Program-made: the position numbers and the translations under genes | Notes under the pieces: model-generated | Told to the model about the DNA's origin: nothing | Databases searched by the model: none | The model's input: the letters and a program-made list of their open reading frames with translations, nothing else | From: a virus | Virus record (IMG/VR): IMGVR_UViG_3300013286_000009 | Span: 21,597 to 85,596 of that record | Reading direction: 5' to 3' (one strand) | Length of the DNA: 64,000 bases | Shown here: positions 1-28,236 of the stretch, one piece after another | How positions within the stretch are numbered: position 1 is the stretch's first letter | Layout of the letters: every line of letters begins with the position of its first letter

Positions 1-158
1 TGTGCATTTTCTACTTGAGCATGTTCGCCTGTTTCTGGCGTGAACTCGTATTGCTCTTTTAACAAAGCATATCGAGTAACGATCCTGCAAATATCTGTTG
101 GTATGATAGATTTGACACTAACATATTTGTTTATTTTAAAAAATTCAGGATTTGTCAT
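1..158 (-). CDS. Partial 2OG-Fe(II) oxygenase-like protein (N-terminus only)
   Basis: Only the first 52 codons are inside the window; the gene continues past its left edge. The ATG (156-158) overlaps the TGA of the upstream oxygenase gene as ATGA, which points to translational coupling in one leftward operon. The visible part reads MTNPEFFKINKYVSVKSIIP followed by a helix-rich stretch and a segment ending EHAQVENA. From memory, phage 2OG-Fe(II) dioxygenases often begin this way, with a beta strand, a short loop and an 'AQ-x-NAHS'-type segment. The catalytic HxD and distal His lie outside the window, so the family call rests on the N-terminus and on the neighbours. Confidence 0.55.
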   Translation of the reverse strand, partial: MTNPEFFKINKYVSVKSIIPTDICRIVTRYALLKEQYEFTPETGEHAQVENA

Positions 159-943
159 TTAAATGGTGCTCCTAGATTCCATGCTACTAAGCTATAGCGT
201 GTGCCTTTTGTTACTGGAGTAACTTGATGGTGTATATGTGAAGGGAATACCACTACAGACCCTTTTGGTCTTATTTCATTACAAGTATGATATCGATCGG
301 GTCTATGTGGCCCAAGATCAAACCTTAATTTTCCGCCGGTATAATCTTTACCATCGTTAAGACTTATAGTCACACTTAATTTTCTTGTTTTTCCAACCAT
401 TTTTGTGTTACCCGTTCGCCATTGTTCCTCGGGCATAGGATTTCCAGTTTGATCTACAAATATTGTACCGTCTGTATTTTTGTGAACTGGGTGTATTGTT
501 GGATCAAATGCTTCATACGGACGTTCGCTACAGTCAGTATGCCATCCGTAAAACTGTCCTGGAGTATATTTTGTGAATTGAAAATCCTCAGTAAAATCCC
601 AATCAAAATTCCAGCTGGCTTTAGTGTTAGCCTCTCTAACGAACGGCCATACTATATCGAACAGCGATGAATTATTTAAAAAAACAACATTAGAATCTCT
701 AACATACAAGTTTTCTAGATCCGACTTTGCGTGTATTAATCCGCTTACTGTTTTATCACCAACCGGTACACCTCCTTTTAACGAACTTTTTTCACGCCAG
801 CCTCCGGTAGTACCGGAAATAGCATCTTCACCATATTTAGATTGAGTATCGTGCATAGCACTAATACCCAGCTCTAATATTTGATCGCAAATTTCAGGAG
901 GTATTGCTGATTTAAAAAACCAATAATAATACTGAAGTATCAC
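155..943 (-). CDS. 2OG-Fe(II) dioxygenase (prolyl-hydroxylase-like)
   Basis: This is a 262-residue member of the 2-oxoglutarate/Fe(II) dioxygenase superfamily, resembling PKHD-type hydroxylases. Such enzymes use O2 and 2-oxoglutarate to hydroxylate a protein side chain or small molecule. The iron triad is intact: H135-T-D137 in GWHTDC, distal H239 in PSHIHHQV, and the 2OG-binding R249 in KGTRYSLV. The strand KLSVTISLND before the GGKLRF turn is the usual jelly-roll core. The start is GTG (941-943), overlapping the TGA of the upstream gene as GTGA; no ATG lies in a better position. It sits in the middle of a three-gene leftward run. The substrate cannot be read from the sequence. Confidence 0.85.
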   Translation of the reverse strand: MILQYYYWFFKSAIPPEICDQILELGISAMHDTQSKYGEDAISGTTGGWREKSSLKGGVPVGDKTVSGLIHAKSDLENLYVRDSNVVFLNNSSLFDIVWPFVREANTKASWNFDWDFTEDFQFTKYTPGQFYGWHTDCSERPYEAFDPTIHPVHKNTDGTIFVDQTGNPMPEEQWRTGNTKMVGKTRKLSVTISLNDGKDYTGGKLRFDLGPHRPDRYHTCNEIRPKGSVVVFPSHIHHQVTPVTKGTRYSLVAWNLGAPFK

Positions 944-1554
944 CTAAACAATGCTCCGTGTACATGCCCGATTATGAAATGTGCTGTTCCTTTCTTCATT
1001 GGTGCAATTCGATAAGGGATAAAGGAAGGAAAAATAAGACAGCATCCCTGGTCGTTAACACCAGCTTGGGAAGTATCAATATTTAAAAACTCAACTTGGC
1101 CGCCTTCATACTCTGCAGGGTCCGTAAGATTGATAATAAAAGTCAATTTGCGCGAAGGTGCTACTGGTGTCATTTCGATATGCCAATTATAATAATCTTT
1201 TTCAGTATACTTGAAAACTTGGGGATAATCTTGATCTATAATACCTAACAAATTAAAATCATATACTGAATCGTTAGCATTTTTTGTAACATCACGGATA
1301 TCCATAAAAGGAAATCCTTCAACGTTGCCCCTTAGTTTTTGTCTTGTAGATTTATGCAAATCAACAGAACCTATCACTTTAGAAGGTAACCACAATTCTT
1401 CAATGCAGTTTTTTAATACTTGTTCGCATTGATCTTTGGAAAATAATTCTGATTTGTTAATGGATGTAATTTCTAAACTAGCAATTTTAGTAGTCATTGC
1501 TGCCGCCGCATCGGTAAAACTGCTGTCGATAGATCCTAATTCTTCTGTTGCCAT
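940..1554 (-). CDS. 2OG-Fe(II) oxygenase-fold protein with degraded active site
   Basis: A 204-residue paralogue of the gene downstream, sharing the jelly-roll pattern KLTFIINLTDP...YEGGQVEF and a C-terminal block that aligns without gaps to its neighbour (FPSFIPYRIAPMKKGTAHF against FPSHIHHQVTPVTKGTRYS). In that alignment the distal iron ligand His becomes Y181 and the 2OG-binding Arg becomes A191. The first motif is H125-I-E127, an acceptable HxE. Loss of two of four cofactor residues suggests it no longer performs standard 2OG chemistry; it may be a structural partner or bind a different ligand. The frame is otherwise intact. The start has an AAGGA ribosome-binding site about 9 bases upstream. 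It is first in the leftward operon and overlaps the next gene by four bases. Confidence 0.7.
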   Translation of the reverse strand: MATEELGSIDSSFTDAAAAMTTKIASLEITSINKSELFSKDQCEQVLKNCIEELWLPSKVIGSVDLHKSTRQKLRGNVEGFPFMDIRDVTKNANDSVYDFNLLGIIDQDYPQVFKYTEKDYYNWHIEMTPVAPSRKLTFIINLTDPAEYEGGQVEFLNIDTSQAGVNDQGCCLIFPSFIPYRIAPMKKGTAHFIIGHVHGALFR

Positions 1555-1657
1555 AGTATGGGTCCTTGTATGGTTATTTTGTATGTACTTATCTTAAAGA
1601 TATCGATGAATTTAAAGTTTTGGCGGTTCAAGTCTGCTGACCGCACGATAGAATTAT

Positions 1658-1665
1658 TGTAAATA
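1658..1665 (+). promoter_or_regulatory. Possible late promoter box (TGTAAATA)
   Basis: An eight-base box one mismatch from the T4 late consensus TATAAATA. It lies 24 bases before the ATG at 1690, with an AAGGAG ribosome-binding site between them. It is weaker than the exact matches elsewhere in the window. Confidence 0.4.
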
Positions 1666-1689
1666 TTGGGACAAGGAGAACTGTTTTTA

Positions 1690-2289
1690 ATGGGTTGGCT
1701 AGAAGATAACACCATGCATTCGCCGGTAACTATATACAAATCCGAGCACACATTTATAGAAACTGTGGTGTCGGGTTCTCGTTTTCCTTGGTTCTGGCAA
1801 GGGCAACAAACGTTCAACGATGCCAAGGAAAATGCGGCCTTGCCAAAAGATATGAAATATTTTAACGGGCCTTATCTTAGTCATATATTGTTACACAGGA
1901 CTGAAGTAGAAGAAATCAGCCATTTAACAAGAATCGCAAAAGATTCTAGTGAACATTATGAATTCTTTATAGAAATTTTTCATAGATGGATGGTTGAACA
2001 GGGATTAAAATATACTAAAATTTTCAGGGCAAATCTTAATCTCACATGGCATAACGGCAATTTGCATACAGAACCACATTTGGATCATGCATGGCCCCAT
2101 AATAATTTTGTAATGTATTTGGATACTTGCGAAGGAGCTGAAACATTACTATGGGATGACAAATTTGAACAAATGTTCGCAATACCCTGTGTTAGTTACA
2201 CCGCTGTTACATTTAAATCTTGCTGGCATGCACATAGATATCCTGCTATTGGAAAACGTCGACTAATATTAGTGATTACATACGCATGA
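1690..2289 (+). CDS. 2OG-Fe(II) oxygenase family protein
   Basis: A 199-residue protein. The ATG at 1690 is preferred because AAGGAG (1673-1678) stands 11 bases upstream; an in-frame TTG at 1666 would place that site inside the gene. It has the superfamily signature: H130-L-D132 in TEPHLDHAWP, then a distal His in WHAHRYPAIGKRRLIL (H182 most likely, H180 possible), followed by R190/R191 as the 2-oxoglutarate anchor. The N-terminus with FPWFWQG resembles the short phage oxygenases at 7,232-8,394 (FPWFYSEH, FPWYFTPD), so these belong to one subgroup. It is followed by a halogenase gene on the same strand 76 bases downstream. Confidence 0.75.
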   Translation: MGWLEDNTMHSPVTIYKSEHTFIETVVSGSRFPWFWQGQQTFNDAKENAALPKDMKYFNGPYLSHILLHRTEVEEISHLTRIAKDSSEHYEFFIEIFHRWMVEQGLKYTKIFRANLNLTWHNGNLHTEPHLDHAWPHNNFVMYLDTCEGAETLLWDDKFEQMFAIPCVSYTAVTFKSCWHAHRYPAIGKRRLILVITYA

Positions 2290-2365
2290 CAGATATCCGG
2301 CGCCAAAACAGCGTAGAGTTGTGTTTGTAGTTACATATATATAGTAAACATAAAATAGGAATCGT

Positions 2366-3922
2366 ATGAAAATAGTAATTGTTGGCGGAGGTACTGCTGG
2401 GTGGACTACGGCAGTTTTAATGTCTAGCAGATGGCCTACACATCAGATTACCGTCATTGAATCTACTAAGATAGGAGTTATTGGGGTGGGAGAAAGTACC
2501 ACCGGATTCTTAACAGACATACTTACCAATTACGGTCAGGATCTAGATATGGATCACGACGAATTTATTGCGGAAACAGGCGCAACTTTAAAGTATTCCA
2601 TCAAACACAAGGGATGGACTAACGATATAGACGACTTTTATCACGGGCCGATAGACGGTACCACTACTAAGGAAAGTACCCCAGATGTTGCTTTTGCATA
2701 CGCTTTGAAATACCTGCAATCTAAACAACGACCTAATGCATCAGAATGCGGGTGGTTAATAACTTCTGGTAAATCTAATTTTAACAAACACACAAATACA
2801 TTTGACAATTATCGACATGCTATGCACGTCGATGCACATTTAGTCGGAAAATATTTTAAAAAGAAAGCGTTATGCAGATCTAATGCCTCTCATGTAGATT
2901 CAGAAGTTGTTAAAACTAATCTTGATGAAAAAGGATACATTAAATCCGTTAGATTAACTGATGGTTCTGAGGTAGCCGGTGATTTTTTTATAGATTGTAC
3001 TGGATTTTCTAAAATGTTGATGAAAGAAATGCCCGGTAACGGATGGGAAAGTTATCAAAAAAATCTCCCTTTAAATACCGGATTGCCATTCCAATTAAAA
3101 TACTTAGATGATGAGATGCCAGAGCCGTTTACAACAGCTTGGGCTCAAAAGAACGGATGGATGTGGCAAATACCACTCATGGATCGCAAAGGATGTGGTT
3201 ATGTATTTTGTGATGCATTTACTACTCCAGATAAAGCACAAGAAGAAATTGAGACTATTTTAAAAAGACCAATAGAACCTATTAAAGTTATTAAATTTGA
3301 TACTGGTAGACAAAAATCATCATGGATTAATAACTGTGTAACTATAGGGCTGTCTTCGGCCTTTTTAGAACCACTAGAAGCTACCAGTATTCATACTACT
3401 ATTGTACAAGCAAGAATACTAGCATTTGAATTTATTAAACATACTCTTGAAGATACTATAAATCCTGGAAGTATTAACATATACAATCAAAGAACAAGAC
3501 GTATATTCGACGATGTTAAAGATTTCTTAGTAATGCACTATATGGGTGGTAGGAATGATTCAGAATTTTGGAAATATATTGAAACTGGTGCAACTAAAAC
3601 CCCGTATGTCAACGATTTACTGCTCATGGCTCAGAACAAATTGCCTACTGTAAATGATTTTCCACAATATCTTGGCTCGGCCGGTTGGGCACTGTACAGC
3701 TATGTTATGGCTGGAATAAATCGAATAGATATATCAAAGATGGATGGCGAATTAAATCTAGAAACCCCTGGCGGGAATTTAGAATTTATAGCTAGAGAAT
3801 TTCATTATGATTTCCAAGATCAGATGAAAAGAAAATATCAGGATTGCGCCAGCTATGATGACTTCATAAGACATTTCAGGGCAATTAGACACAAACACGG
3901 TTTTTCAGATCTTAAACCTTAA
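2366..3922 (+). CDS. Flavin-dependent halogenase (tryptophan halogenase family), copy 1
   Basis: A 518-residue protein of the FAD-dependent tryptophan halogenase family. In characterised members, FADH2 supplied by a reductase and O2 generate hypohalous acid, which is directed onto an electron-rich substrate. Visible landmarks are the FAD-binding GGGTAGW at residues 7-13, GVGES at 40-44, the catalytic-lysine position K76 in ATLKYS (equivalent to K79 of RebH and PrnA), the family motif GWMWQIP at 264-270, and E338 in EPLEAT (equivalent to PrnA E346). The residue after this glutamate is Ala339, whereas characterised tryptophan halogenases have Ser. AGGA lies 5 bases before the ATG. The gene abuts a convergent oxygenase gene with no intergenic bases. 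No flavin reductase is encoded in the window, so one would come from the host. Confidence 0.9.
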   Translation: MKIVIVGGGTAGWTTAVLMSSRWPTHQITVIESTKIGVIGVGESTTGFLTDILTNYGQDLDMDHDEFIAETGATLKYSIKHKGWTNDIDDFYHGPIDGTTTKESTPDVAFAYALKYLQSKQRPNASECGWLITSGKSNFNKHTNTFDNYRHAMHVDAHLVGKYFKKKALCRSNASHVDSEVVKTNLDEKGYIKSVRLTDGSEVAGDFFIDCTGFSKMLMKEMPGNGWESYQKNLPLNTGLPFQLKYLDDEMPEPFTTAWAQKNGWMWQIPLMDRKGCGYVFCDAFTTPDKAQEEIETILKRPIEPIKVIKFDTGRQKSSWINNCVTIGLSSAFLEPLEATSIHTTIVQARILAFEFIKHTLEDTINPGSINIYNQRTRRIFDDVKDFLVMHYMGGRNDSEFWKYIETGATKTPYVNDLLLMAQNKLPTVNDFPQYLGSAGWALYSYVMAGINRIDISKMDGELNLETPGGNLEFIAREFHYDFQDQMKRKYQDCASYDDFIRHFRAIRHKHGFSDLKP

Positions 3923-4540
3923 TTAGAAAAAATTAAAGGATAGGCTTACTCTAAGATCGTCTTCATCTTCTGTAAGATTAGATTCAACATAGTGTGCTAA
4001 ATGCCCGGGAAATAATAATAACATTCCTTCTTTGGGTTTAAATGAATATTGTGTCCATAGTCTGCTGTTATTAATATCTTTTCCTTGCTTTTCTAATTGT
4101 TGGCTAATGAAATTCATGCGGTCTACTTCTATTACCGATCTAGTAAACACGATGTTGCCGCTATTAGCCGGTACCTTAAGATAATAAACACCGCTTAGAA
4201 AAGCATTATGATGAGTGTGTTCTCTGTTGTATGTATGGCGTGGATTGGCATTATACCAGTATGCAACAGTATCCATTTCTGAAGGTAATTCCCATGCAGA
4301 TTTTATACGTTTAGCAGACGGAATTATATAATTTTGAAATAATCGATCAGTTGCCCAGTTATCGTAATTAGGAGAATACATCGCCGGAGATTGCCAACCT
4401 CCTAAATTGCTCTTTTGCACACTAGGAGTAGTTGGTATTAATTGTTTTATGGCATCAAGAATAGGCGGATTGATCACCGGATCTAAATAAGTACTAAAAC
4501 AAGATGATACAAACAATAAATTTTCTTTTAGCTCTGCCAT
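3923..4540 (-). CDS. 2OG-Fe(II) oxygenase, TIGR02466-like
   Basis: A 205-residue protein with the pattern of the phage/bacterial 'putative 2OG-Fe(II) oxygenase' family (TIGR02466/PF13759). It has a histidine cluster H108-T-H110-H111 leading into FLSGVYYLKVP and GNIVF, then a distal H183 in FPGHLAHYVE and R197 in DLRVSLSFN near the C-terminus. The metal motif is HxH rather than HxD, as in its two relatives at 6,050-7,235. It is a single-gene leftward unit whose ATG follows an exact late box after only five bases, so the mRNA may be leaderless. It is convergent with halogenase copy 1. The substrate is unknown. Confidence 0.78.
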   Translation of the reverse strand: MAELKENLLFVSSCFSTYLDPVINPPILDAIKQLIPTTPSVQKSNLGGWQSPAMYSPNYDNWATDRLFQNYIIPSAKRIKSAWELPSEMDTVAYWYNANPRHTYNREHTHHNAFLSGVYYLKVPANSGNIVFTRSVIEVDRMNFISQQLEKQGKDINNSRLWTQYSFKPKEGMLLLFPGHLAHYVESNLTEDEDDLRVSLSFNFF

Positions 4541-4545
4541 GTAGA

Positions 4546-4553
4546 TATTTATA
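4546..4553 (-). promoter_or_regulatory. Late promoter (exact TATAAATA)
   Basis: Exact match on the minus strand to the T4 late -10 element recognised by gp55-containing RNA polymerase. Only five bases separate it from the ATG of the oxygenase gene at 4540, so transcription would start at or next to the initiation codon. Confidence 0.7.
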
Positions 4554-4557
4554 AATG
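4550..4557 (+). promoter_or_regulatory. Late promoter box (TATAAATG), overlapping a divergent box
   Basis: A plus-strand box seven of eight identical to the late consensus. It interlocks with the minus-strand TATAAATA at 4546-4553 and stands 22 bases ahead of the halogenase ATG at 4580. Confidence 0.5.
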
Positions 4558-4579
4558 CACATTTAACACGGAATCATTC

Positions 4580-6049
4580 ATGAAACAACTTAAAAAACTA
4601 TCAGTGATAGGGGGCGGAACAGCTGGATTTGTTGCCGCTTTAATTCTTAAACAAAGATTTCCACTTATGGAAATTGAATTAGTTAGATCTAAAAAGATAG
4701 GTATTATAGGTGTCGGTGAAGGTAGTACTGAACACTGGAATGAATTCCTCACATATATTGGAGTTAAATGGCAAGCTGTTATTCAGCACTGCGATGCTAC
4801 GTTTAAATGCGGTATTATGTTTCGTGGGTGGGCAGATGAGGACTATATGCATAGCATCGGGCCAGAAAATGATGTTAAGAATGGACAATATCCTACCATC
4901 TATGGCAAATACATAGCAGAAGGTGCTGCCAACAGATTCTTTAATCCTAATTTAACGTGGGATAACAAGCTATACGCAAACTTTTTAAAGCCTGAGACAT
5001 CTTCTCCCTACAATCAATATCATTTTAATACTCAAAAATTGAATGATTTCCTTACCATGATTGCCATACACAAAGGCATAACAGTTACCGATGATGAAAT
5101 AGTCGATATTATCCTTAACGAACAAGGCGAAATAGAAGAGCTTGTTGGAGAAACAAGCTCTTATAAATCTGATTTTTACATAGATAGTACCGGTTTTAAA
5201 AGATTATTGATATCTAAACTAGGAGCAAAGTGGTGCAGTTATAGCCAGTATCTTAAAATGAAAGCCGCTATTGTATTTCCTATAGGGGATACAGAAGAAT
5301 ACAATATATGGACCACAGCACAAGCTATGGATTACGGTTGGATGTTTAAAATTCCAGTATGGGGACGTAGTGGCAACGGGTATATTTTTGATAGTGATTA
5401 TATTACTGCGGAACAGGCGCAAGAAGAAGTTGAAAAATTCCTCGGACATAAGATAGAAGTAGGTAAACATTTGACATTTGATCCGGGTGCCTTAGATAAC
5501 GTATGGATTAAAAATTGTTGCGCTGTTGGACTTAGTTCTAGTTTTGTAGAACCATTAGAAGCTACGAGTATTGGAACTAGTATACAACAAGTTTTTAAAT
5601 TAATGCATCGTATTCCAAATTATAACGAAGATACTATAGAAGAATATAATAAAGATATTAGTGATATGTTAACTAACATCAGAGATTTTGTTATTTTGCA
5701 TTATGTTACAAACAAATCAAATACACAATTTTGGAAAGATGTAGCTAATATTAAATTGCCAGACGAATTAGAACGTAATATTAAAAAATGGCGTAAAAAT
5801 TTACCCATAGCAGAAGATTTTCAAGGCAAGTCTGCTTATATTTTATTTAGAGATGCTCATTACTTACAAGTATTAGCTGGATTAAAATTGTTTGACCAGC
5901 AAAGCATACGTGCTGAATACGACATGATGAATCCAGCTGTTAAAAAAATAGCAGAAGATTTTATTAGAGAGACTAAAACTGCTGAAAAACGTGATCCAGT
6001 TATAGGTCACAAAGAATTTATTACAAAATTACGTAATACAAAATACTAA
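4580..6049 (+). CDS. Flavin-dependent halogenase family protein, copy 2 (divergent)
   Basis: A 489-residue tryptophan-halogenase-fold flavoprotein. FAD site GGGTAGF is at residues 11-17, with Phe in place of the usual Trp. GVGEG follows at 44-48, the catalytic lysine position K76 is in ATFKCG, and the family motif is altered to GWMFKIP (253-259; Trp to Phe). E327 lies in EPLEAT, again with Ala after the glutamate. It is the most divergent of the four copies at the flavin and tunnel motifs, although lysine and glutamate are kept, so activity is possible but substrate or halide preference may differ. No strong ribosome-binding site is visible. Its stop directly abuts the convergent oxygenase gene at 6050. 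Confidence 0.87.
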   Translation: MKQLKKLSVIGGGTAGFVAALILKQRFPLMEIELVRSKKIGIIGVGEGSTEHWNEFLTYIGVKWQAVIQHCDATFKCGIMFRGWADEDYMHSIGPENDVKNGQYPTIYGKYIAEGAANRFFNPNLTWDNKLYANFLKPETSSPYNQYHFNTQKLNDFLTMIAIHKGITVTDDEIVDIILNEQGEIEELVGETSSYKSDFYIDSTGFKRLLISKLGAKWCSYSQYLKMKAAIVFPIGDTEEYNIWTTAQAMDYGWMFKIPVWGRSGNGYIFDSDYITAEQAQEEVEKFLGHKIEVGKHLTFDPGALDNVWIKNCCAVGLSSSFVEPLEATSIGTSIQQVFKLMHRIPNYNEDTIEEYNKDISDMLTNIRDFVILHYVTNKSNTQFWKDVANIKLPDELERNIKKWRKNLPIAEDFQGKSAYILFRDAHYLQVLAGLKLFDQQSIRAEYDMMNPAVKKIAEDFIRETKTAEKRDPVIGHKEFITKLRNTKY

Positions 6050-6631
6050 TCAGCTGAAATTCATTGCTATTGATATGCGGGGAGTAATATTCTTCCCAGG
6101 TTCTACCATGTGTCTAAGCCAGGATCTGAATATTAAAAGTTTTGCAGGTTCTGGAGCATAAGATATACGGGTAAAGCTAAGTGTATTTTTCTTTTTAATT
6201 TTCTTAAGGCCAAACATATCAGGTTCTAGTGGGCTTTCAAATATGATACGCCCGGCATTTTCTGGAGCAGCCATATAAAAAACTGCACTAAAAATAGACC
6301 CGTTATGTGTATGAAATTCTTGCCAACCCTTGTCATCAGATATGTTTAACCAAGCAGAATCATTTTTATATGTTCCTTCGCAATTATGTAACGATGCGAA
6401 TTCATTAACATGATCTGTAATTAAATCTAACAACGGTTTAAATACCGGATCGTTAGTTAAATCATGAGTACCGTGTGTATTATATGTACCACCTAACCAT
6501 TCTGCTCCTCCAGTTGGAGTTTTATCTTTGATGATAAAAGAATGTTCTATAAGGTTTGCATTTTCTTCTGCGGATATAAGATTTTCTTCTACATAAATGC
6601 ATGTAGGAAACCACATTTCAACTTTGCCCAT
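6050..6631 (-). CDS. 2OG-Fe(II) oxygenase, TIGR02466-like
   Basis: A 193-residue protein and last gene of a four-gene leftward oxygenase operon. It has WLNISDD followed by H107-T-H109 and FSAVFYM, then GRIIFESP, and later H174 in SWLRHMVEPG with R185 in PRISIAMNF. This matches the TIGR02466/PF13759 layout of an HxH pair, a central GxIxF strand, a distal His and an Arg. The ATG lies inside the 3' end of the preceding gene (14-base overlap), with AGGA just upstream within that gene. It is a paralogue of the genes at 6,618 and 3,923. The reaction is probably hydroxylation; the substrate is unknown. Confidence 0.78.
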   Translation of the reverse strand: MGKVEMWFPTCIYVEENLISAEENANLIEHSFIIKDKTPTGGAEWLGGTYNTHGTHDLTNDPVFKPLLDLITDHVNEFASLHNCEGTYKNDSAWLNISDDKGWQEFHTHNGSIFSAVFYMAAPENAGRIIFESPLEPDMFGLKKIKKKNTLSFTRISYAPEPAKLLIFRSWLRHMVEPGKNITPRISIAMNFS

Positions 6632-7235
6632 TTGGTCCTGCCCATATATTAAATGAAATTGCTATGCGATTCTTATCAGATTTATTAACAGTTACTGAAT
6701 GATTTAACCAGGATTCAAATAATATAATTTCTCCTTTTACTGGCGTATGATTAACACTGTAAAAATTATAACCGTTATCTTCTTTTTTTAAAGTATTAAA
6801 AAATACATCTGTTACTCGCCTAGTTTCTATAGGATTAAAAAATACTATATCACCGCTGTCTTCTGGTACTTGCAAATAATAACAACCGCTTATTAATGCT
6901 CCGTAATGATCATGCCTATTAAAATCAGCACCCGGCGGGTATAACTGTAACCAGGACGTTATATCCAACAAACATTCGCGATCAAACCCTAATAATTCTA
7001 AAAATTTTCTAGCTTCTGAATTAATTACCTCTATCATAGGAAAATCTTTAATTTTTCCTAAGAAATTTTTATCTGTTTGATAATAAGTTGTTAATAATTG
7101 TTTAGGATCTCGGGATTCTTCAAAGCATTTAGATTCGTCGATGTAGTCGTATACTAATCCTAAAGAATTAGCTACTAATTCTGGATCAACGGTTGTTGTT
7201 ACTATAGGAATTGGAAATATATGATCTATCTTCAT
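6618..7235 (-). CDS. 2OG-Fe(II) oxygenase, TIGR02466-like
   Basis: A 205-residue paralogue of the neighbouring oxygenases. The key segment is SWLQLYPPGADFNRHDHYG, with H108-D-H110, followed by SGCYYLQVP and GDIVFFNP. The distal site is H179 in SWLNHSV and R190 in KNRIAISFN. All residues expected of the family are present. Its ATG overlaps the TGA of the upstream gene (ATGA), so it is translationally coupled; it overlaps the downstream gene by 14 bases. It is the third gene in the operon starting at 8,394. Confidence 0.8.
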   Translation of the reverse strand: MKIDHIFPIPIVTTTVDPELVANSLGLVYDYIDESKCFEESRDPKQLLTTYYQTDKNFLGKIKDFPMIEVINSEARKFLELLGFDRECLLDITSWLQLYPPGADFNRHDHYGALISGCYYLQVPEDSGDIVFFNPIETRRVTDVFFNTLKKEDNGYNFYSVNHTPVKGEIILFESWLNHSVTVNKSDKNRIAISFNIWAGPNGQS

Positions 7236-7837
7236 AATGGTTCTAGATTTATATTTAATATCACCCGTCTACTGGATTGTATAGGATTGCTAGCAGTATG
7301 GTATTGTAAACCATTTATCCATACAAGTCGATTGGCTTTAGGATGTACTCGGGTGCGGGTGGTAAACTTGTCATATCCAATGCCATTACTACCTGGTACA
7401 GGGATAAACGTTTGATCAAATATTCTAGTATCACCGTCGCAGTCGTTAAAATAAAATATCAATGTTTCGTGTGGTCGAAAATAATCAACATGTGGTAAGT
7501 TATAATTTTCTTCTGTATAATTTATTCTAGGATGTTTCATACTGCATCTTGCACGTATCAAATGTCTTTCTGTAAAATTTAAGGTTGCAAGTTTTTTAAA
7601 AAATGGCATGAATAAATCGTATGTAAAACTTTTTACGTCGTATGTTTTATCATAAATTACATGATTGAATCCATCCGTTTCAACTGCTAATAAATCTTTT
7701 ACTACATTATCTTCAGGAGCCAATGACACATGTTCAGAATAAAACCATGGAAATTTTTCCGATAATACAGCCGCGGCCAATGGTTGAAATTGTTCCGCAG
7801 GCAAAAAATCATCTATTATTTTTAATCGATCTGTCAT
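7232..7837 (-). CDS. 2OG-Fe(II) oxygenase, short phage type
   Basis: A 201-residue protein beginning with LKIIDDFLP, a common opening of phage 2OG oxygenases. H116-V-D118 lies in NLPHVDYFRPHETLIFYFND, the strand DGDTRIF follows, then distal H180 in QYHTASNP and R190/R191 in SSRRVILNIN. The complete HxD...H...R set supports an active Fe(II)/2-oxoglutarate enzyme. It shares its architecture with the upstream gene at 7,837 (IIDDF opening, DGDT strand, YYHTA/QYHTA), so the pair arose by duplication. Its ATG shares one base with the upstream TAA (TAATG). Confidence 0.82.
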   Translation of the reverse strand: MTDRLKIIDDFLPAEQFQPLAAAVLSEKFPWFYSEHVSLAPEDNVVKDLLAVETDGFNHVIYDKTYDVKSFTYDLFMPFFKKLATLNFTERHLIRARCSMKHPRINYTEENYNLPHVDYFRPHETLIFYFNDCDGDTRIFDQTFIPVPGSNGIGYDKFTTRTRVHPKANRLVWINGLQYHTASNPIQSSRRVILNINLEPL

Positions 7838-8394
7838 TATATTACATCAAAATTAATAATGCATCTTACATCTTGTAAAGGTTGTTCAGCTGTATGATAG
7901 TACTTACCATTAAAAATAACAGCTCGTCCTTGTTTTGGAGTTATCCTATGTATGATATTGTAATCTTGTACCTTAGCATCAAATTCTTCAATTGCTCCAT
8001 GGCGCTGTTTATCCACTATGATAGTATCTCCATCACTGTCTGTTACATAATATAATATTACTAAATGATCATATGTTAAATCTATGTGTAAATTATCAAC
8101 TTGTTTTAAATTTTTTGATGGAAATTGCATAAAACTGCGACACTGTACTACATCGTTGTATCTAAAATTTATAGCATCGCATCCAATATATGCTAATGGT
8201 GCTAACATATTATAAAAACTGCTTACAGTTTCTTTGCGATCTCTGTATAAATGAGCTAGCGCAGGAGTGTGTGTACTGGCCAAATTTCCAAATGTAATAT
8301 CTGGAGTGAAATACCAGGGAAATGCAGGACCCATTAGTGTTTGTTTAATCTGTTCTTGATAAGTTTTTGGTATAAAATCGTCTATTATCTTCAT
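7837..8394 (-). CDS. 2OG-Fe(II) oxygenase, short phage type
   Basis: A 185-residue protein, first gene of the four-gene leftward oxygenase operon. MKIIDDFIP starts the chain. H103-I-D105 lies in NLHIDLTYDHLVILYYV, the DGDTIIVD strand follows, and H167 in YYHTAEQP with R177 in DVRCIINF completes the cofactor site. It is the closest paralogue of the downstream gene at 7,232. An exact TATAAATA box ends six bases before the ATG and there is no room for a normal ribosome-binding site, which suggests a leaderless late transcript. It diverges from halogenase copy 3. Confidence 0.82.
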   Translation of the reverse strand: MKIIDDFIPKTYQEQIKQTLMGPAFPWYFTPDITFGNLASTHTPALAHLYRDRKETVSSFYNMLAPLAYIGCDAINFRYNDVVQCRSFMQFPSKNLKQVDNLHIDLTYDHLVILYYVTDSDGDTIIVDKQRHGAIEEFDAKVQDYNIIHRITPKQGRAVIFNGKYYHTAEQPLQDVRCIINFDVI

Positions 8395-8400
8395 GTTGGA

Positions 8401-8408
8401 TATTTATA
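8401..8408 (-). promoter_or_regulatory. Late promoter (exact TATAAATA)
   Basis: Exact T4-type late element on the minus strand, six bases from the ATG of the first gene of the oxygenase operon. The arrangement repeats that at 4,546, including the following bases TC. Confidence 0.7.
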
Positions 8409-8467
8409 GAAATTTTCTACGGTACCAAAAAAAACAATAAGTACTGATAGACGGAGCAATTAAACGA

Positions 8468-9934
8468 ATGAAAGTACAATCATTAACAATAGTAGGCGGA
8501 GGTACTAGCGGTTGGCTAGCGGCCGCATATCTTTATAAAAATCAACCCGACATAAAAATAACGGTTATTGATAAAGAAGTAGGCACTCCTGTAGGTGTAG
8601 GAGAGGCGACACTGCTGTCATTCCGACCATTCCTAGACGAATGCGGAATACCTATAGAAGAATGGATTGTTCCCTTAGATGCTGGCTATAAATCTGGTAT
8701 ATTGTTTACTAATTGGCGAGAAGACGGCGATGATATATGGCATCCTTTTCAAAAAGGAAATAGAGAAATCATGGGAGAGATCAAAACTCATGATCTATGG
8801 AGCCGTAACCAACATCTAGATTTCAAAGAATATGCTTTAGATTTTTACTCGTCTTCTATAGATCATAATTCCGTCGATGTTATTAACATTGAAAACTATG
8901 CCAGTCATGTTGACTGTGGGAAATTAGTATTATTTTTACAGGATAGACTTAAAGATAAAATCGATATTATACGTTCAGACGTTGTTAGTGTTGTAAACAA
9001 CGCTCAAGGAATTGACTATCTAGAATTAAAAGACGGTTCTAAAATTAAAAGCGATTTGTATGTGGATTGTACCGGGTTTAAGAACGTACTAAGAACACCT
9101 GCAAAAAGAATCAACTTGGAAGATAGACTATTTGTTAATACCGCATTGGCACATCCAGTACAATACCAAGACCGGTCTACTGAATTTAAACCACACGCCG
9201 TATGTGAAGCAGTAGAACATGGCTGGATATGGAAGATCGGTGTTGCCAGTCGTATCGGCACCGGACTAGTGTTTAATCGAAACATAACTACCGTAGAAGA
9301 TGCTAAAGATTCTTTTGTTGCACACTGGAGTGATCGTATAAAGAAAGAAAACATTCGTGTAATTGACTGGTCTCCTTTTTACATAGAAGATCAATGGAGT
9401 GGCAATGTAGTTAATATTGGATTAAGCGCAGGATTTATCGAACCGTTAGAAAGTACAGGCATTGCGCTAATCACTATCGGTATAACACAATTGCATAATG
9501 CATTAAATGAAAGATACTATACTGATATAAATCGAGATTATTATAATCTACAGATGAAAACATTGTTTGAAGATTGCATAGATTTTGTCAGTATGCACTA
9601 TGCTAACAATCGCAGGCCTGGAAAATTCTGGGACCATGTGCGTAATACTTTTAAACCTTCGGAAAGAATGTTGCATCAGATAGACGAATTAGCTGATCCT
9701 AACATAGTAGTACCTCGAAATTCTAAACATAATTATATGTTTGGAGGAAGTAACTGGATGTTGATGCTATATCAACTAGGATATACTTTGGCGCCACGCA
9801 ATATGTCAATCCCAGATGAAGTAGCTCTTGAAAAATTAGTAAAAAACTATAAAGAATATGCTAAGAATAGGCATGTATGGAGCAGGCATCACAGTACAGA
9901 AATAGATAGAATTCACGAGATTAGAAAACTATGA
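8468..9934 (+). CDS. Flavin-dependent halogenase (tryptophan halogenase family), copy 3
   Basis: A 488-residue flavoprotein with GGGTSGW at 10-16, GVGEA at 43-47, K75 in AGYKSG (catalytic lysine position) and GWIWKIG at 252-258, where Gly replaces the last Pro of GWxWxIP. E328-S329 lies in EPLESTG, so the catalytic Glu-Ser pair of characterised tryptophan halogenases is kept. Like related enzymes it would use FADH2, O2 and halide to form HOX and transfer it via the lysine. GGAG stands 11 bases before the ATG. Its TGA overlaps the ATG of the orphan gene at 9,931, beginning a three-gene plus-strand operon. No substrate can be deduced. Confidence 0.9.
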   Translation: MKVQSLTIVGGGTSGWLAAAYLYKNQPDIKITVIDKEVGTPVGVGEATLLSFRPFLDECGIPIEEWIVPLDAGYKSGILFTNWREDGDDIWHPFQKGNREIMGEIKTHDLWSRNQHLDFKEYALDFYSSSIDHNSVDVINIENYASHVDCGKLVLFLQDRLKDKIDIIRSDVVSVVNNAQGIDYLELKDGSKIKSDLYVDCTGFKNVLRTPAKRINLEDRLFVNTALAHPVQYQDRSTEFKPHAVCEAVEHGWIWKIGVASRIGTGLVFNRNITTVEDAKDSFVAHWSDRIKKENIRVIDWSPFYIEDQWSGNVVNIGLSAGFIEPLESTGIALITIGITQLHNALNERYYTDINRDYYNLQMKTLFEDCIDFVSMHYANNRRPGKFWDHVRNTFKPSERMLHQIDELADPNIVVPRNSKHNYMFGGSNWMLMLYQLGYTLAPRNMSIPDEVALEKLVKNYKEYAKNRHVWSRHHSTEIDRIHEIRKL

Positions 9935-10674
9935 GAGAAATACGTTGGTCGTTTAGCACAAGTTGCGAATGGTTCGTTGATCATGCGTCGTCAATAGAGC
10001 ATTTGGTACAGGACTACGATCCTTTTACTAGTCTGACTAAAGATGTTATGGCTGAACGTAAAGGAGCAGTGTTTACCAAATGTCCTGCACATACTGATTT
10101 TATCAAAAATACATTTATCATACGTGCTCCGTTTGATCTTACTATCAATAGCAAGATAGATCCTGTTACTAATGACGGTGAATTGTGGTGCGACAACCTC
10201 ACACAGGAACAATTTAAACAGATAATAGACACTAGATTTTTATTTAATAATGAACGCGGTATTAATCCGTGGCCTATTATTGGCATCGATTGGTTATACT
10301 GTTTTACTTCTGACGTTTCTACTATATTGCAAATAATGCCGGCATTCATGCACAGAAATCAATTTGTAGAAAAAACAATTATGGTTCCCGGGCAGTTTGA
10401 TATTAGCAAATGGGTGCGTAATGTAGAAACAGCTTTTGAAGTAAGAGGCAACAACGAACGTATCGAGATAAAGAAAGGTGATGCCATTATGTATGCCAAA
10501 TTTTTATGCGATGAACCTGTAAGATTAGTACAAGAATCTATTCCTTGGGAGGAGATGTATGTGTGTAACGAGATAAAAAGTAAAGATCGCAACAGGCCTC
10601 TGCAGAACCGTTACGAAGAATATGCCAAAGTACGTGCGGCAAAGTGTCCATATCCACATGACAAACAAGATTAA
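9931..10674 (+). CDS. Orphan protein coupled to two halogenases
   Basis: A 247-residue protein that I do not recognise. It has no signal peptide, membrane span or known catalytic motif that I can identify. It contains conserved-looking aromatic patches (EIRWSFSTSCEWFVDH, IGIDWLYCFTSD) and a C-terminal segment rich in charged residues ending NRYEEYAKVRAAKCPYPHD. It starts as ATGA on the stop of halogenase copy 3, and its last 17 bases overlap the start of halogenase copy 4, so all three should be made together. This position suggests a partner such as a substrate-presenting protein or an enzyme of the same pathway, but this is inference from gene order only. Confidence 0.75.
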   Translation: MREIRWSFSTSCEWFVDHASSIEHLVQDYDPFTSLTKDVMAERKGAVFTKCPAHTDFIKNTFIIRAPFDLTINSKIDPVTNDGELWCDNLTQEQFKQIIDTRFLFNNERGINPWPIIGIDWLYCFTSDVSTILQIMPAFMHRNQFVEKTIMVPGQFDISKWVRNVETAFEVRGNNERIEIKKGDAIMYAKFLCDEPVRLVQESIPWEEMYVCNEIKSKDRNRPLQNRYEEYAKVRAAKCPYPHDKQD

Positions 10675-12223
10675 TTCCATTATCGTAGTAGGCGGTGGCA
10701 GTGCAGGCTGGATTACAGCGGCATCATTGATCACACAACTTAAAGATGTCAAGGTAACTGTGATTGAAAGTCCTAACATACCCACTGTAGGTGTGGGAGA
10801 AAGCACAGTAGGCGGAATACGTGCTTGGTTGCGCATGGTGGGTATAGTAGATCGCGACTTTATGAAAGCTACCGATGCCAGCTACAAGATTGCTATTAAA
10901 TTCAATAATTTCTATGAAAAAGATCAAGGCACTTGGTATTATCCATTTGGTCGACCACTGCTGGAAGATAATTTGCATGGAAGAGATGATTGGTTTATTA
11001 AGAAATCTCTATACCCAAAAACTCCTAGTCACGATTATGTAGACTGCTATTATCCGCAAATGGCACTGGTTAATTCTAATAAGATCATGATGAACAACGG
11101 TGACCTTGATAATTTTAATTTTTATAACGACACTGCTTTTCATTTTGATGCGGCTAAACTAGGTATTTGGTTGCGAGATCATCACTGTAAACCTAAAGGT
11201 GTAAGTCACATACCTGCTGAAGTACAAGAAATAAAAGTAGATGAAACCGGTATACAATATCTCACATTAGATAGCGGTGCAAATATATCTGCTGACTTGT
11301 ATATAGACTGTACTGGATTTAAAAGTTTGCTGTTGGGAGAGGCATTGGCAGAACCATTCGTAAGTTACGAACATTTGCTACCTAACAATCGTGCTTGGGC
11401 TACTAGAATTCCTTATACCGATAAAGAAACACAACTGACCAATGTAACTGAATGCACTGCAACGGATAACGGTTGGGTATGGAACATACCTTTATGGAGT
11501 CGTATTGGAACTGGCTATGTTTACAGTGACAAATATCTTACTCCTGAACAGGCAAAAAATGATTTTATTAACTATTTGTCAGCACAAGGACATCCCGTAG
11601 AAGATCTAGAATTCCGTGATATTAAGATGCGTGTGGGTAAACATAAGAGACTATGGGTTAAAAATTGTGTAGCTCTGGGTCTTAGTGCGGCATTTATAGA
11701 ACCTTTAGAATCAACAGGATTATTAACTACACATGATTTTGCTAGATCATTATGCGATATGTTGGTAAGAGATTCAATTAGCCAATGGGATAGAGATGAG
11801 TTCAATCTTAAATGCGAAGATGAATTTAATTACTGGGCTCAATTTGTTTCCATGCATTACGCTCTAAGCCAAAGAAATGACAGTAAATATTGGCAAGATA
11901 TTAATAATAAATCCTATCTGGATTTAATGCCTGCTGTTAATAGACTAGGAACACAAAGTCTATATCATCATTCTATCTATTCAAAAAACTTTAATAAATT
12001 TTTTCAAGACGATGACGGAGTTAATTGTTTGGCAGCTGGAATGAATTGGAATCCCCAAACATCTGTAAATCTCAATACTATATTTGCTGTTGGTACTGAT
12101 TTACACGAAGATTTTAGTCTAATGGTTGATAAATTAGAAGACAGAAAAGAAAGATGGAAAAGGGCTGTAGCAACAGCCCCTAGTCTTTATCAATATCTAA
12201 AAGATAATTTTTATAAAGATTAA
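10658..12223 (+). CDS. Flavin-dependent halogenase (tryptophan halogenase family), copy 4
   Basis: A 521-residue protein, counted from the ATG at 10658, which places the FAD motif GGGSAGW at 12-18 as in relatives. An ATG at 10622 would add 12 residues without family support. It has GVGES at 45-49, K77 in ASYKIA (as in RebH ASYK), GWVWNIP at 272-278 and E351-S352 in EPLESTG, making it the most canonical of the four. A characterised viral relative is VirX1 from a cyanophage, which halogenates varied small aromatic molecules with an iodide preference; whether this copy shares that is unknown. It overlaps the upstream orphan gene by 17 bases and the convergent adhesin gene by four. Confidence 0.9.
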   Translation: MTNKINSIIVVGGGSAGWITAASLITQLKDVKVTVIESPNIPTVGVGESTVGGIRAWLRMVGIVDRDFMKATDASYKIAIKFNNFYEKDQGTWYYPFGRPLLEDNLHGRDDWFIKKSLYPKTPSHDYVDCYYPQMALVNSNKIMMNNGDLDNFNFYNDTAFHFDAAKLGIWLRDHHCKPKGVSHIPAEVQEIKVDETGIQYLTLDSGANISADLYIDCTGFKSLLLGEALAEPFVSYEHLLPNNRAWATRIPYTDKETQLTNVTECTATDNGWVWNIPLWSRIGTGYVYSDKYLTPEQAKNDFINYLSAQGHPVEDLEFRDIKMRVGKHKRLWVKNCVALGLSAAFIEPLESTGLLTTHDFARSLCDMLVRDSISQWDRDEFNLKCEDEFNYWAQFVSMHYALSQRNDSKYWQDINNKSYLDLMPAVNRLGTQSLYHHSIYSKNFNKFFQDDDGVNCLAAGMNWNPQTSVNLNTIFAVGTDLHEDFSLMVDKLEDRKERWKRAVATAPSLYQYLKDNFYKD

Positions 12224-13365
12224 TATCTTACAACAACAATACCAGAACCACCGTCTGCACCATGCTGTCCACCACCGGCACCGCCACCTGTATTTGCGCC
12301 GCCGTGGCCGCCACGTGCTGTAGGTTGTGCATCTTGGCCTTGGGTAAGAGCCATTCCGCCGCCTTGGCTAAGTTTAATAGTTCCTCCGTATGGCCCGCCA
12401 TGATGATGTCCGCCACCGCCGCCACCACCAATGCCACCATCGCTAAATCCCCAGCCTAAATGGCCACCTCCGCCACCTCCGCCACCATAGTATATTGAGG
12501 CACCGCTACCGAGGATATCGCTCGCACGGCCTGCGCCGCCTATAATCATATTATTACGAAAACTACCACGGTATGCTTGACGTCCGTCAGGAGCACTTGC
12601 TCCAGGGCCGCCTGCACCGCCGCCACCTCCGCCTTGGTGAGTATTTTCGGTGTCGACATTGTATCTAAGGCCAGAACCTCCAGGATATCCTAATCCTACA
12701 GTTCCGTATCCACCATATGATCGCTGTCTACTGCCGCTAGTATCTGTATTTGAGCCGCCGCCACCGGATGCACTACTGCGGCCGCCGGTTGATCCGTTGT
12801 CCATCGATCCGTTACTGCCGCCAGCCCAGGATCCACCGCCACCTCCGCCTGTGGCGGTTATGGATCCAAACACACTTGATCCTCCAGTTGGCCCTGCGAC
12901 GTTAGGAGTACGGCCGCCGCCACCGCCGCCTACTGTAACACTAACACCAACGCCAGCACTAACCGGATAACTACGATTAAAGCTAACGCCACCCCCGCCA
13001 CCCCCGGCAGCCCAATCGTATCCGCTTGAACCACCTCCGCCAACTACTAGCACTTGAACATTGCCGGTAAATGTTGGTGTAAATGTTGCAGATGTAACTG
13101 AGGTAAACATGTGAATAATAGCACCGTGAGCATAATATATGCTATCACCGCCTGTACCCACTAGACCCGGACTATAACCTGTTACTGGTCTCCAAGCACT
13201 ACCGTCATAAAATTCTAAAGTTCCTGAAGAATTTCCTGCGGCATTATAGTTATTATTAGTAGTATTATATCTTAACTTTGCTAATCCCGTTGATGTACTA
13301 ACTGTCTGATTAGGCAGTTTAATATTGTCTGATCCGTTGATTGTGGTATTTTTAAGGGTTGCCAT
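12220..13365 (-). CDS. Glycine-rich adhesin-like tail fibre protein, paralogue 1
   Basis: A 381-residue protein. The N-terminal ~75 residues hold a short fibre module also present in other virion proteins here (LEFYDGSAWRPVTGYSPG). A beta segment (FTPTFTGNVQVLVVGGGG, from about residue 95) follows, then more than 250 residues dominated by Gly runs broken by Ser, Tyr, His and Asn, ending in GGSGIVVVRY. This matches the glycine-rich domain common in phage tip adhesins; in Salmonella phage S16 gp38 such runs form polyglycine-II helices that display receptor-binding loops. Three tandem paralogues suggest tip diversity. GGAG precedes the ATG. The antisense strand has long open frames caused only by GGN codons. 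Confidence 0.75.
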   Translation of the reverse strand: MATLKNTTINGSDNIKLPNQTVSTSTGLAKLRYNTTNNNYNAAGNSSGTLEFYDGSAWRPVTGYSPGLVGTGGDSIYYAHGAIIHMFTSVTSATFTPTFTGNVQVLVVGGGGSSGYDWAAGGGGGGVSFNRSYPVSAGVGVSVTVGGGGGGRTPNVAGPTGGSSVFGSITATGGGGGGSWAGGSNGSMDNGSTGGRSSASGGGGSNTDTSGSRQRSYGGYGTVGLGYPGGSGLRYNVDTENTHQGGGGGGAGGPGASAPDGRQAYRGSFRNNMIIGGAGRASDILGSGASIYYGGGGGGGGHLGWGFSDGGIGGGGGGGHHHGGPYGGTIKLSQGGGMALTQGQDAQPTARGGHGGANTGGGAGGGQHGADGGSGIVVVRY

Positions 13366-13376
13366 CTATCGCTCCA

Positions 13377-14516
13377 TTAGTATCTGATAATAACAATGCC
13401 ACTGCCGCCATTGCCTGCTTGCCCGTATGAGCCACCACCACCACCGCCTGTATTATCTCCGGCACTGCCGCCAACATAATGACTAGACCCTTGTCCGCCA
13501 TTATTAATAGAATAGCCACCGCCTACTGATGTTCCTGTATGCTGTGTACCAGGATATCGAGGGCCGCCATGATATTGGGCGCCGCTACCACCACCACCAA
13601 TACCACCACTTGGACACATTGTGCTGTTACCATGGTGTACAGCGCCACCGCCACCACCACCCCAGTACTGTATGTAACCCATGACATCACTGGCTGCGCC
13701 TGCGCCGCCATTTTGTGCTAATCCTTGGTGGCAATCGTCCTCCATACTCCAACCAGGTTCGGCAGCTCCGCCGCCTCCGCCTGCATGGTGACTATCTTCA
13801 CCTTGACGATTATATCTCATTCCGCTTCCGCCTGGAAATCCTTGGCCGCTTACACCGCGTCCGCCCAAATTTGTGTTACGACTGTCGTTTGGACCAGTAT
13901 GGCTATTTGATCCGTTGCCTTGTGATGCAGGACAACCGCCGCCGCCTGAACCGCCTGGTCGTGCGGCATATCCGTCCCAAGATCCGCCACCACCACCGCC
14001 GTATGCGGTAATTGATCCAAATGTTGTGTTGGCTCCTGGATTTGAACTTTGCGCATAGGCAGGGGGTGAAGGCTGTGTACCGGCTACGTTTAGCGGAATT
14101 CCTGAACCTTGACTTACTGGATATGCTCTGTTGTAAACGAATCCTCCAGCGCCTCCGCCACCGCCTAGATGTCCTCCGCCTGAGCCACCGCCACCAATTA
14201 CTAAAACTTCTACGGTTCCTGAAAATGCAGGTGTAAATGTTGCGGCGCCTGATGCAGTAAACATGTGTACTACACCGGGTGCTCGATTTGAATTATTTGG
14301 AGCACTGTATATCAAAGTGCCGCCTGTACCTATAGAACCTTTGCTGATACCAGTAATAGGTCTCCAACCAGTAGAATCATAAAATTCCATCAAATTGTTA
14401 GCAGTATTTAATCTTAACATACCTGCTGTTGGACTACCGTTTCTACTAGCAGTTGCTCCTGTTGGTAAATCTAAATATCCAGTATCACTGATTGTTGTGC
14501 TTTGTAAAGTTGCCAT
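13377..14516 (-). CDS. Glycine-rich adhesin-like tail fibre protein, paralogue 2
   Basis: A 379-residue paralogue with the same plan as its neighbours: GMLRLNTANNLMEFYDSTGW module near residues 33-52, a FTPAFSGTVEVLVIGGGG strand, the NRAYPVSQGSGIPL turn and a long Gly-rich region ending GSGIVIIRY. The variable segments between Gly runs (for example ARPGGSGGGGCPASQ, MCPSGG) differ from the other two copies and are the likely host-contact loops. Two Cys residues in these loops are unusual for the family and could form a bridge. It is 11 bases upstream of paralogue 1 in the same direction and is probably co-transcribed. Confidence 0.75.
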   Translation of the reverse strand: MATLQSTTISDTGYLDLPTGATASRNGSPTAGMLRLNTANNLMEFYDSTGWRPITGISKGSIGTGGTLIYSAPNNSNRAPGVVHMFTASGAATFTPAFSGTVEVLVIGGGGSGGGHLGGGGGAGGFVYNRAYPVSQGSGIPLNVAGTQPSPPAYAQSSNPGANTTFGSITAYGGGGGGSWDGYAARPGGSGGGGCPASQGNGSNSHTGPNDSRNTNLGGRGVSGQGFPGGSGMRYNRQGEDSHHAGGGGGAAEPGWSMEDDCHQGLAQNGGAGAASDVMGYIQYWGGGGGGAVHHGNSTMCPSGGIGGGGSGAQYHGGPRYPGTQHTGTSVGGGYSINNGGQGSSHYVGGSAGDNTGGGGGGSYGQAGNGGSGIVIIRY

Positions 14517-28189: not shown

Positions 28190-28208
28190 TTTATTATTCC
28201 TCTGATAA

Positions 28209-28216
28209 TATTTATC
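28209..28216 (-). promoter_or_regulatory. Late promoter box (GATAAATA)
   Basis: Minus-strand box seven of eight identical to TATAAATA, in the 47-base gap between the two giant genes, 19 bases before the ATG of the 3706-residue protein. AGAGGA lies between box and start. Confidence 0.6.
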
Positions 28217-28236
28217 TTAATTAAAATTATTAAGTT

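What the first reader, a model, noticed from the sequence alone, without database searches (positions are those of the whole stretch)
1..12223. Island of four flavin halogenases and nine 2OG-Fe(II) oxygenase-type genes in a T4-like phage
Directly visible: four full-length tryptophan-halogenase-type genes, eight complete and one partial oxygenase genes, and one orphan gene, in 12.2 kb with almost no spare DNA. Single phage halogenases and scattered phage 2OG oxygenases are known (VirX1 of a cyanophage is a halogenase that has been characterised). I am not aware of a described cluster of this size. Halogenases (plus) alternate with oxygenase operons (minus), and late-type promoters serve several units, so they are probably deployed together late in infection. 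A tailoring pathway that hydroxylates and halogenates either virion proteins or a small molecule is a reasonable hypothesis. This is inference.
Basis: partly seen in the sequence, partly recalled or inferred. Interest (0 to 1): 0.92.

Follow-up and report, generated by a model that had tools for sequence, protein, structure and literature searches.

The report
Phage fibre-linked halogenase and oxygenase island
A large T4-like phage carries, right beside the genes for its glycine-rich tail-fibre tips, four different halogenase genes and nine oxygenase genes; relatives carry the same block, which points to phages chemically decorating the proteins they use to grip their host.

Summary
Window 1-12223 holds four full-length PF04820 flavin-dependent halogenases, eight complete and one cut 2OG-Fe(II) oxygenase-type genes and one companion gene, in 97.6% coding DNA. 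All 308 full-length viral homologues keep the catalytic lysine.

The island is not unique. Eighteen distinct viral contigs carry the same syntenic locus with 3-5 halogenases and up to 13 oxygenases. Smaller forms (1-2 halogenases) sit at the same site, between tail-fibre genes and neck genes, in cultured cyanophages, including Syn10, the source of VirX1.

The phage is a fragment of a jumbo T4-like phage (capsid 72% identical to Phosso). The matching locus in Phosso and Paride lacks the island.

The new result is the link to fibre tips. The island abuts glycine-rich PF21722 fibre proteins in both phage groups. In 50,697 phage records, the 20 with one such fibre subfamily all carry the VirX1-clade halogenase. 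Within species S-RIM44, five records have both and four have neither, apparently swapped as one cassette.

Best reading (about 0.55): a late-expressed module that hydroxylates and halogenates receptor-binding fibre tips. Activity and substrate are inferred. Small-molecule chemistry remains the main rival.

The parts
1..158 (-). 3' part of a 198-aa 2OG-type oxygenase (g021; phrog_2954, misnamed ferrochelatase), complete in the parent record
   Evidence: H99-x-D101 and H154/R156 conserved in 47 homologues
155..943 (-). 2OG-Fe(II) oxygenase (g022), PF13640, nearest solved relatives PiuC-type PKHD hydroxylases
940..1554 (-). 2OG-type protein (g023), PF13640 just over cut-off; distal His/Arg not in the usual place, possibly an inactive partner of g022
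   Evidence: ATAA(A/G)TA upstream in 16 of 18 orthologues
1666..2289 (+). 2OG-type oxygenase (g024), phrog_274 only; H138-x-D140...H188/H190...R199; TTG start uncertain
2366..3922 (+). flavin-dependent halogenase H25; duplicated in tandem in some relatives
   Evidence: PF04820 325.8 bits; tree; map
3923..4540 (-). 2OG-type oxygenase (g026), PF13759, HxH...H...R; late-type promoter TATAAATA directly upstream
4546..4553 (-). late-type promoter TATAAATA
   Evidence: conserved upstream of g026 orthologues
4580..6049 (+). flavin-dependent halogenase H27
   Evidence: PF04820 322.5 bits; present in 18 of 18 contigs
6050..6631 (-). 2OG-type oxygenase (g028), PF13759
6618..7235 (-). 2OG-type oxygenase (g029), PF13759; solved homologues 3bvc and 2rg4 share HxH
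7232..7837 (-). 2OG-type oxygenase (g030), phrog_274, H116-x-D118...H180...R191
7837..8394 (-). 2OG-type oxygenase (g031), phrog_274, H103-x-D105...H167...R177
8401..8408 (-). late-type promoter TATAAATA of the g031-g028 unit
8468..9934 (+). flavin-dependent halogenase H32 (WIWKIG in place of WxWxIP); ATAA(A/G)TA upstream in 11 of 19 orthologues
9931..10674 (+). halogenase-companion gene g033 (phrog_17480), weak dUTPase-like fold; probable distant homologue of phrog_7084 downstream of cyanophage halogenases
10622..12223 (+). flavin-dependent halogenase H34, in the VirX1 clade (VirX1 6qgm best solved match, E 9e-107)
12220..13365 (-). glycine-rich fibre-tip protein GR35 (31% Gly), PF21722; model resembles Pam3 fibre
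13377..14516 (-). glycine-rich fibre-tip protein GR36, PF21722
14520..15581 (-). glycine-rich fibre-tip protein GR37, PF21722
15582..16697 (-). tail fibre protein next to the tips

Best explanation
The island is a tail-fibre maturation cassette. Shown by sequence: it lies between neck genes and fibre genes, beside three PF21722 glycine-rich fibre proteins, with a fibre-assembly chaperone and GroES/GroEL on its other side. Several of its transcription units carry the phage's late-type promoter. Its four halogenases are separate, anciently diverged and keep their catalytic residues. Inferred: late in infection, host reductases supply FADH2 (no flavin reductase is found in these phage records), and the halogenases chlorinate, brominate or iodinate aromatic side chains (Trp, possibly Tyr or His) in the glycine-rich tips. 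The 2OG enzymes hydroxylate other residues of the same proteins before or during folding. The result would be receptor-binding tips with side chains beyond the 20 amino acids, which could alter adhesion or stability. Several halogenases would mean several distinct sites or tips.
For: Conserved locus: 18 distinct contigs with H25, H27, H32 and the companion in all, and glycine-rich tips in every contig that extends far enough, at about 50-68% protein identity. Cross-lineage adjacency: the VirX1-clade halogenase follows PF21722 fibre genes in syn9, Syn10, S-RIM44, P-RSM6, P-TIM40, S-WAM1, S-SZBM1, S-CREM1, Sf-FR1 and Sf-CH11. Co-occurrence: the 20 phage records with the S-WAM1-type glycine-rich fibre are all among the 26 with that halogenase. 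Within-species swap: S-RIM44 KX349294 and KX349295 share 95-98% identical DNA from just before gp13 onward, but three glycine-rich fibres, two halogenases and several 2OG genes are replaced by a non-glycine-rich protein and one 2OG gene. Jumbo relatives without the island at this locus (Paride, Vibrio 2.275) have no PF21722. Late-type promoters. Catalytic Lys 308/308, Glu 303/308. VirX1's active site is large and open (PMC8407142), and related halogenases act on peptidyl Trp (PMC10858898, PMC12518702).
Against: No modification or activity has been measured. S-B64/S-H35 carry the same halogenase clade away from fibre genes, and other phage halogenases (S-SSM7/6a, P-SSM2, S-H38) sit in other settings. 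Adjacency could reflect a shared variable region. Trp is conserved in the tips, but Trp is conserved in most proteins. Copy numbers of halogenases and tips do not match one to one. The Fisher p value ignores relatedness.
Confidence: 0.55

Rival explanations
1. The island is a small-molecule pathway: tryptophan- or indole-derived metabolites (or free amino acids) are hydroxylated and halogenated, giving a toxin, signal or cell-wall decoration, as proposed for the S-SSM6a cluster.
For: PF04820 enzymes are classically free-Trp or metabolite halogenases (general knowledge); PMC7824862 proposes this for a halogenase plus 2OG cluster in jumbo cyanophages.
Against: All 14 genes of the interval are accounted for and none matches a scaffold-building enzyme family such as carbamoyl transferase, HemK methylase, NRPS or PKS. 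Halogenases in bacterial genomes seldom have 2OG neighbours (73 of 80 loci none). It does not explain co-inheritance with fibre tips.
Confidence: 0.2
2. The enzymes modify a host component (surface protein, peptide or glycan), for example to block superinfection, and lie near fibre genes because both relate to the same receptor.
For: Swapping together with the fibre tip fits a receptor-linked role too; the locus is strain-variable.
Against: Late promoters and the virion-gene setting are late for surface change; the enzymes would need reach to surface targets.
Confidence: 0.12
3. The genes share a variable insertion hotspot but have no functional link to the fibres; each oxygenase or halogenase has its own unrelated role.
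For: Variable regions inside the structural-gene module of cyanophages are known (PMC2984593 reports one between g15 and g18), and 2OG genes occur elsewhere in these genomes.
Against: Same order kept in 18 diverged contigs, same association in two distant phage groups, exact co-occurrence with one fibre subfamily.
Confidence: 0.13

Closest known systems
Cyanophage Syn9/Syn10 halogenase-2OG island (home of VirX1)
   Same: Two halogenases, companion gene (phrog_7084), about nine 2OG-type genes, downstream of PF21722 fibre proteins
   Different: Kyanoviridae, one strand, only VirX1-clade halogenases; the window has four divergent halogenase lineages, mixed strands and a jumbo-phage backbone
VirX1 (PDB 6qgm), iodinating viral halogenase
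   Same: H34 is the closest window protein (E 9e-107), same clade and catalytic residues
   Different: VirX1 is described in PMC8407142 on non-natural aromatic substrates; no native substrate was found in what was read
S-SSM6a/S-SSM7 halogenase plus 2OG cluster (PMC7824862)
   Same: Halogenase with several 2OG enzymes in a phage
   Different: That cluster has carbamoyl transferases, HemK-like methylase and HAD phosphatases; absent here
Peptidyl halogenases SrpI and ChlH (PMC10858898, PMC12518702)
   Same: Flavin-dependent halogenases acting on Trp inside peptides
   Different: Belong to peptide natural-product clusters with precursor peptides; no such precursor recognised here
Pam3 gp24 / S16 gp38 glycine-rich fibre tips
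   Same: GR35 model's best solved match is Pam3 fibre (E 9.6e-5, probability 1.00), receptor-binding glycine-rich domain with chaperone
   Different: TM-scores are low (0.28/0.41); no modifying enzymes reported for them in what was read

Membership tests
Flavin-dependent halogenase, PF04820 | Whole-domain profile match over cut-off | tested here: met
   280-363 bits against 21
Flavin-dependent halogenase, PF04820 | GxGxxG and WxWxIP motifs | tested here: met
   GGGTAG/GGGTSG/GGGSAG in all four; WMWQIP, WMFKIP, WIWKIG, WVWNIP, so two are variants of the second motif
Flavin-dependent halogenase, PF04820 | Catalytic Lys (K79 of PrnA/VirX1) and Glu | tested here: met
   invariant in alignment A1; 308/308 and 303/308 viral homologues
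Flavin-dependent halogenase, PF04820 | FADH2-dependent halogenation activity | not testable with these tools
   no phage flavin reductase PF01613 in nine records; host supply assumed
2OG-Fe(II) oxygenase superfamily | Profile match | tested here: met
   five of eight complete genes over Pfam cut-off, the others by PHROG or sub-cut-off PF13640
2OG-Fe(II) oxygenase superfamily | HxD/E...H iron triad and 2OG-binding Arg | tested here: inconclusive
   complete in g021, g022, g024, g030, g031; HxH in g026, g028, g029 as in solved PF13759 proteins; incomplete in g023
Kyanoviridae fibre-neck halogenase/2OG island | Position between fibre genes and neck genes, PF21722 neighbours, companion gene | tested here: met
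   companion homology moderate (hhalign E 2.8e-4, probability 41)
S-SSM6a-type metabolite cluster | Carbamoyl transferase, HemK methylase, HAD phosphatase genes | tested here: not met
   none among the island genes
Glycine-rich fibre-tip (PF21722) proteins | Profile match and glycine-rich receptor-binding fold | tested here: met
   GR35 25.5 bits, GR36 41.9, GR37 31.9 against 24.3; fold support moderate

The most novel reading that the evidence does not exclude
Phages carry a dedicated protein-halogenation and hydroxylation system that installs halogens on their receptor-binding tips. VirX1 and its relatives would then be virion-modifying enzymes, and host recognition would use side chains outside the standard amino acids.
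Probability: 0.42. Interest if true: 0.93.

Novelty: new variant of a known kind. Interest (0 to 1): 0.75.

Why it matters
Phage halogenases have been known since 2010 or earlier, and VirX1 is a characterised biocatalyst, yet no natural substrate was found in anything read here. Finding that they travel as a cassette with glycine-rich fibre tips, in cultured phages, turns that question into one mass-spectrometry experiment. If confirmed, it would be halogenation of a virus's own proteins, a new way to diversify receptor binding, and a source of peptide and protein halogenases.

Tried and rejected
Glycine-rich fibre scan of viral contigs returned only three contigs already known, so it gave no reverse test there. 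Conservation of Trp/His/Tyr in the tips is suggestive but not diagnostic. The companion gene has no Pfam match; its dUTPase-like fold hit is weak (E 1.8e-3, TM 0.38/0.57), so no function is assigned. A profile of the fibre against PDB sequences found nothing. Origin from a bacterial gene cluster was considered and disfavoured: bacterial halogenase loci seldom have 2OG neighbours and branch apart (FastTree only, some long branches). A simple 'all halogenases have TATAAATA' claim was rejected: 1 of 125 do; where a late-type core is found upstream of them it is mostly ATAAGTA. The host of the phage could not be determined. Two literature searches gave nothing useful, and the VirX1 paper itself is not held.
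Full report
OBSERVATION. Four ORFs of 488-533 aa match PF04820 over almost its whole length at 280-363 bits (cut-off 21). Eight complete ORFs and one cut by the window edge belong to 2OG-Fe(II) oxygenase-type families (PF13640, PF13759, phrog_61, 81, 274, 2954). One gene, 9931-10674, has no Pfam match and hits phrog_17480. Coding density is 97.6%. PHROG names such as 'DNA endonuclease V' and 'ferrochelatase' for these families look like mislabels, since the proteins carry the HxD...H...R pattern.

CATALYTIC STATE. Across 308 full-length viral homologues the catalytic lysine is invariant and the catalytic glutamate is kept in 303. Five of the nine oxygenases have a full HxD...H...R set. Three PF13759 proteins have HxH...H...R, as do their solved relatives 3bvc and 2rg4. 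The protein at 940-1554 lacks the usual distal residues and may be inactive (read from the sequence; inference). No flavin reductase of PF01613 occurs in nine phage records, while the control search finds it in 13 of 14 cellular genomes, so FADH2 would come from the host.

THE PHAGE. The record (85,596 bp, window = 21597-85596) is a fragment of a jumbo T4-like phage: the large terminase is 51% identical to PA5oct-type phages of 286 kb and the major capsid protein 72% to Sinorhizobium phage Phosso of 469 kb. In Phosso and Paride the same neck genes are present but no halogenase or 2OG gene lies in the stretches around them.

NOT A ONE-OFF. A scan with H27 found 46 viral loci; of 41 that are at least 10 kb, 22 hold four or five halogenases and 31 hold three or more, with up to 13 2OG genes. 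Eighteen distinct contigs share the order GroES-GroEL, fibre chaperone, g021-g023, H25, (g026), H27, g028-g031, H32, companion, (H34), GR35-GR37; H25, H27, H32 and the companion are in all 18, at about 50-68% identity. In a 152.8-kb record all four halogenases lie within 11.2 kb. Around the capsid gene of the same lineage, 80 loci (824 kb) contain none. In a FastTree phylogeny the four window halogenases fall in four separate orthologue groups, so they are old, differentiated copies rather than a recent burst, apart from tandem copies of H25; bacterial enzymes branch apart. In 80 bacterial halogenase loci, 73 have no 2OG neighbour.

LINK TO FIBRE TIPS. The island ends directly at three proteins with about 30% glycine that belong to PF21722. 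The predicted structure of the first resembles the cyanophage Pam3 fibre, whose glycine-rich domain is proposed to bind the receptor (PMC9608196); the model is of medium confidence and TM-scores are low. In cyanophages, VirX1-clade halogenases lie downstream of PF21722 proteins (usually with one small gene between) in ten phages, including Syn10, source of VirX1; S-B64 is an exception. A search with the S-WAM1 glycine-rich protein hits exactly 20 of 50,697 phage records, and all 20 carry the VirX1-clade halogenase, which is in 26 records; the p value (4e-71) ignores relatedness. Most telling, S-RIM44 isolates split: five records have both, four have neither. KX349294 and KX349295 are 95-98% identical from just before gp13 onward, but three glycine-rich proteins, two halogenases and several 2OG genes in one correspond to a non-glycine-rich protein and one 2OG gene in the other. 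The cassette therefore appears to be exchanged together with the fibre tip. Only this one pair was compared base by base.

COMPANION GENE. The gene at 9931-10674 has homologues beside halogenases in L056 and L018 and near them in L063. The gene after the halogenase in syn9, Syn10, S-RIM44, S-CREM1, P-TIM40, Sf-FR1, Sf-FP1 and Sf-CH3 (phrog_7084) is a probable distant relative (phrog_7084 E 0.0025; hhalign E 2.8e-4, probability 41). Fourteen of its 15 phage records have a VirX1-clade halogenase, next to it in those inspected. Function unknown; the fold is weakly dUTPase-like.

EXPRESSION. Of all 7-mers, ATAAATA (53 seen, 3.4 expected) and ATAAGTA (42 seen, 3.8 expected) are most enriched upstream of starts in the clade. 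They precede the fibre chaperone (13 of 15), g023 (16 of 18), g026 (10 of 16), H32 (11 of 19) and H27 (8 of 21). ATAAATA matches the T4 late promoter core (general knowledge); ATAAGTA is probably a variant (inference). Orthologues are not independent, but the unit-by-unit pattern is clear.

MECHANISM. Inferred: late expression, then oxygenation and halogenation of the adjacent fibre-tip proteins. The chemistry follows the known families; peptidyl halogenation has precedents (PMC10858898, PMC12518702) and VirX1 has an unusually open active site (PMC8407142). Nothing here shows activity or substrate.

KNOWN OR NEW. Halogenase and 2OG genes in cyanophages have been reported for years (PMC3037559, PMC2984593), and one halogenase-2OG cluster was read as a metabolite or capsule pathway (PMC7824862). 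Among the papers found by the searches I saw none that links phage halogenases to fibre tips or describes four or five in one island; subscription papers were not searchable and not every listed paper was read.

Noticed in passing
G000 8424-12377 (upstream of the window): Tail sheath protein of 1317 aa, about twice the T4 size.
   Followed up: no
G000 18673-20635 (L005/L006): Phage-encoded GroES and GroEL beside the fibre chaperone and the island, kept in most relatives.
   Followed up: partly
window 17069-36363: Two giant fibre-like proteins of 3706 and 2708 aa.
   Followed up: no
L119 4310, L140 2768, L018 8761, L150 4329: A divergent, shorter (about 400 aa) halogenase-like family in related islands, open frame, on a long branch.
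   Followed up: no
clade-wide; window 4546-4553 and 8401-8408: ATAAGTA as a second late-type promoter core beside ATAAATA; at g026 and g031 TATAAATA ends only 5-6 nt before ATG, suggesting near-leaderless transcripts.
   Followed up: partly
L009 7995-8489, L351 5490-5990 and others: Small phrog_1787-type gene between glycine-rich fibres and halogenase in eight cyanophages, and beside glycine-rich fibres in L063 and L018; possible fibre chaperone.
   Followed up: partly
L268 10001-11602: A Deltaproteobacteria MAG contig encodes a phage-type halogenase (49% to H34) inside the viral clade, perhaps a phage contig in the bin.
   Followed up: no
window 3923-4540, 6050-6631, 6618-7235: PF13759 proteins have HxH where HxD/E is expected, conserved across relatives and in solved structures; metal site untested.
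   Followed up: partly
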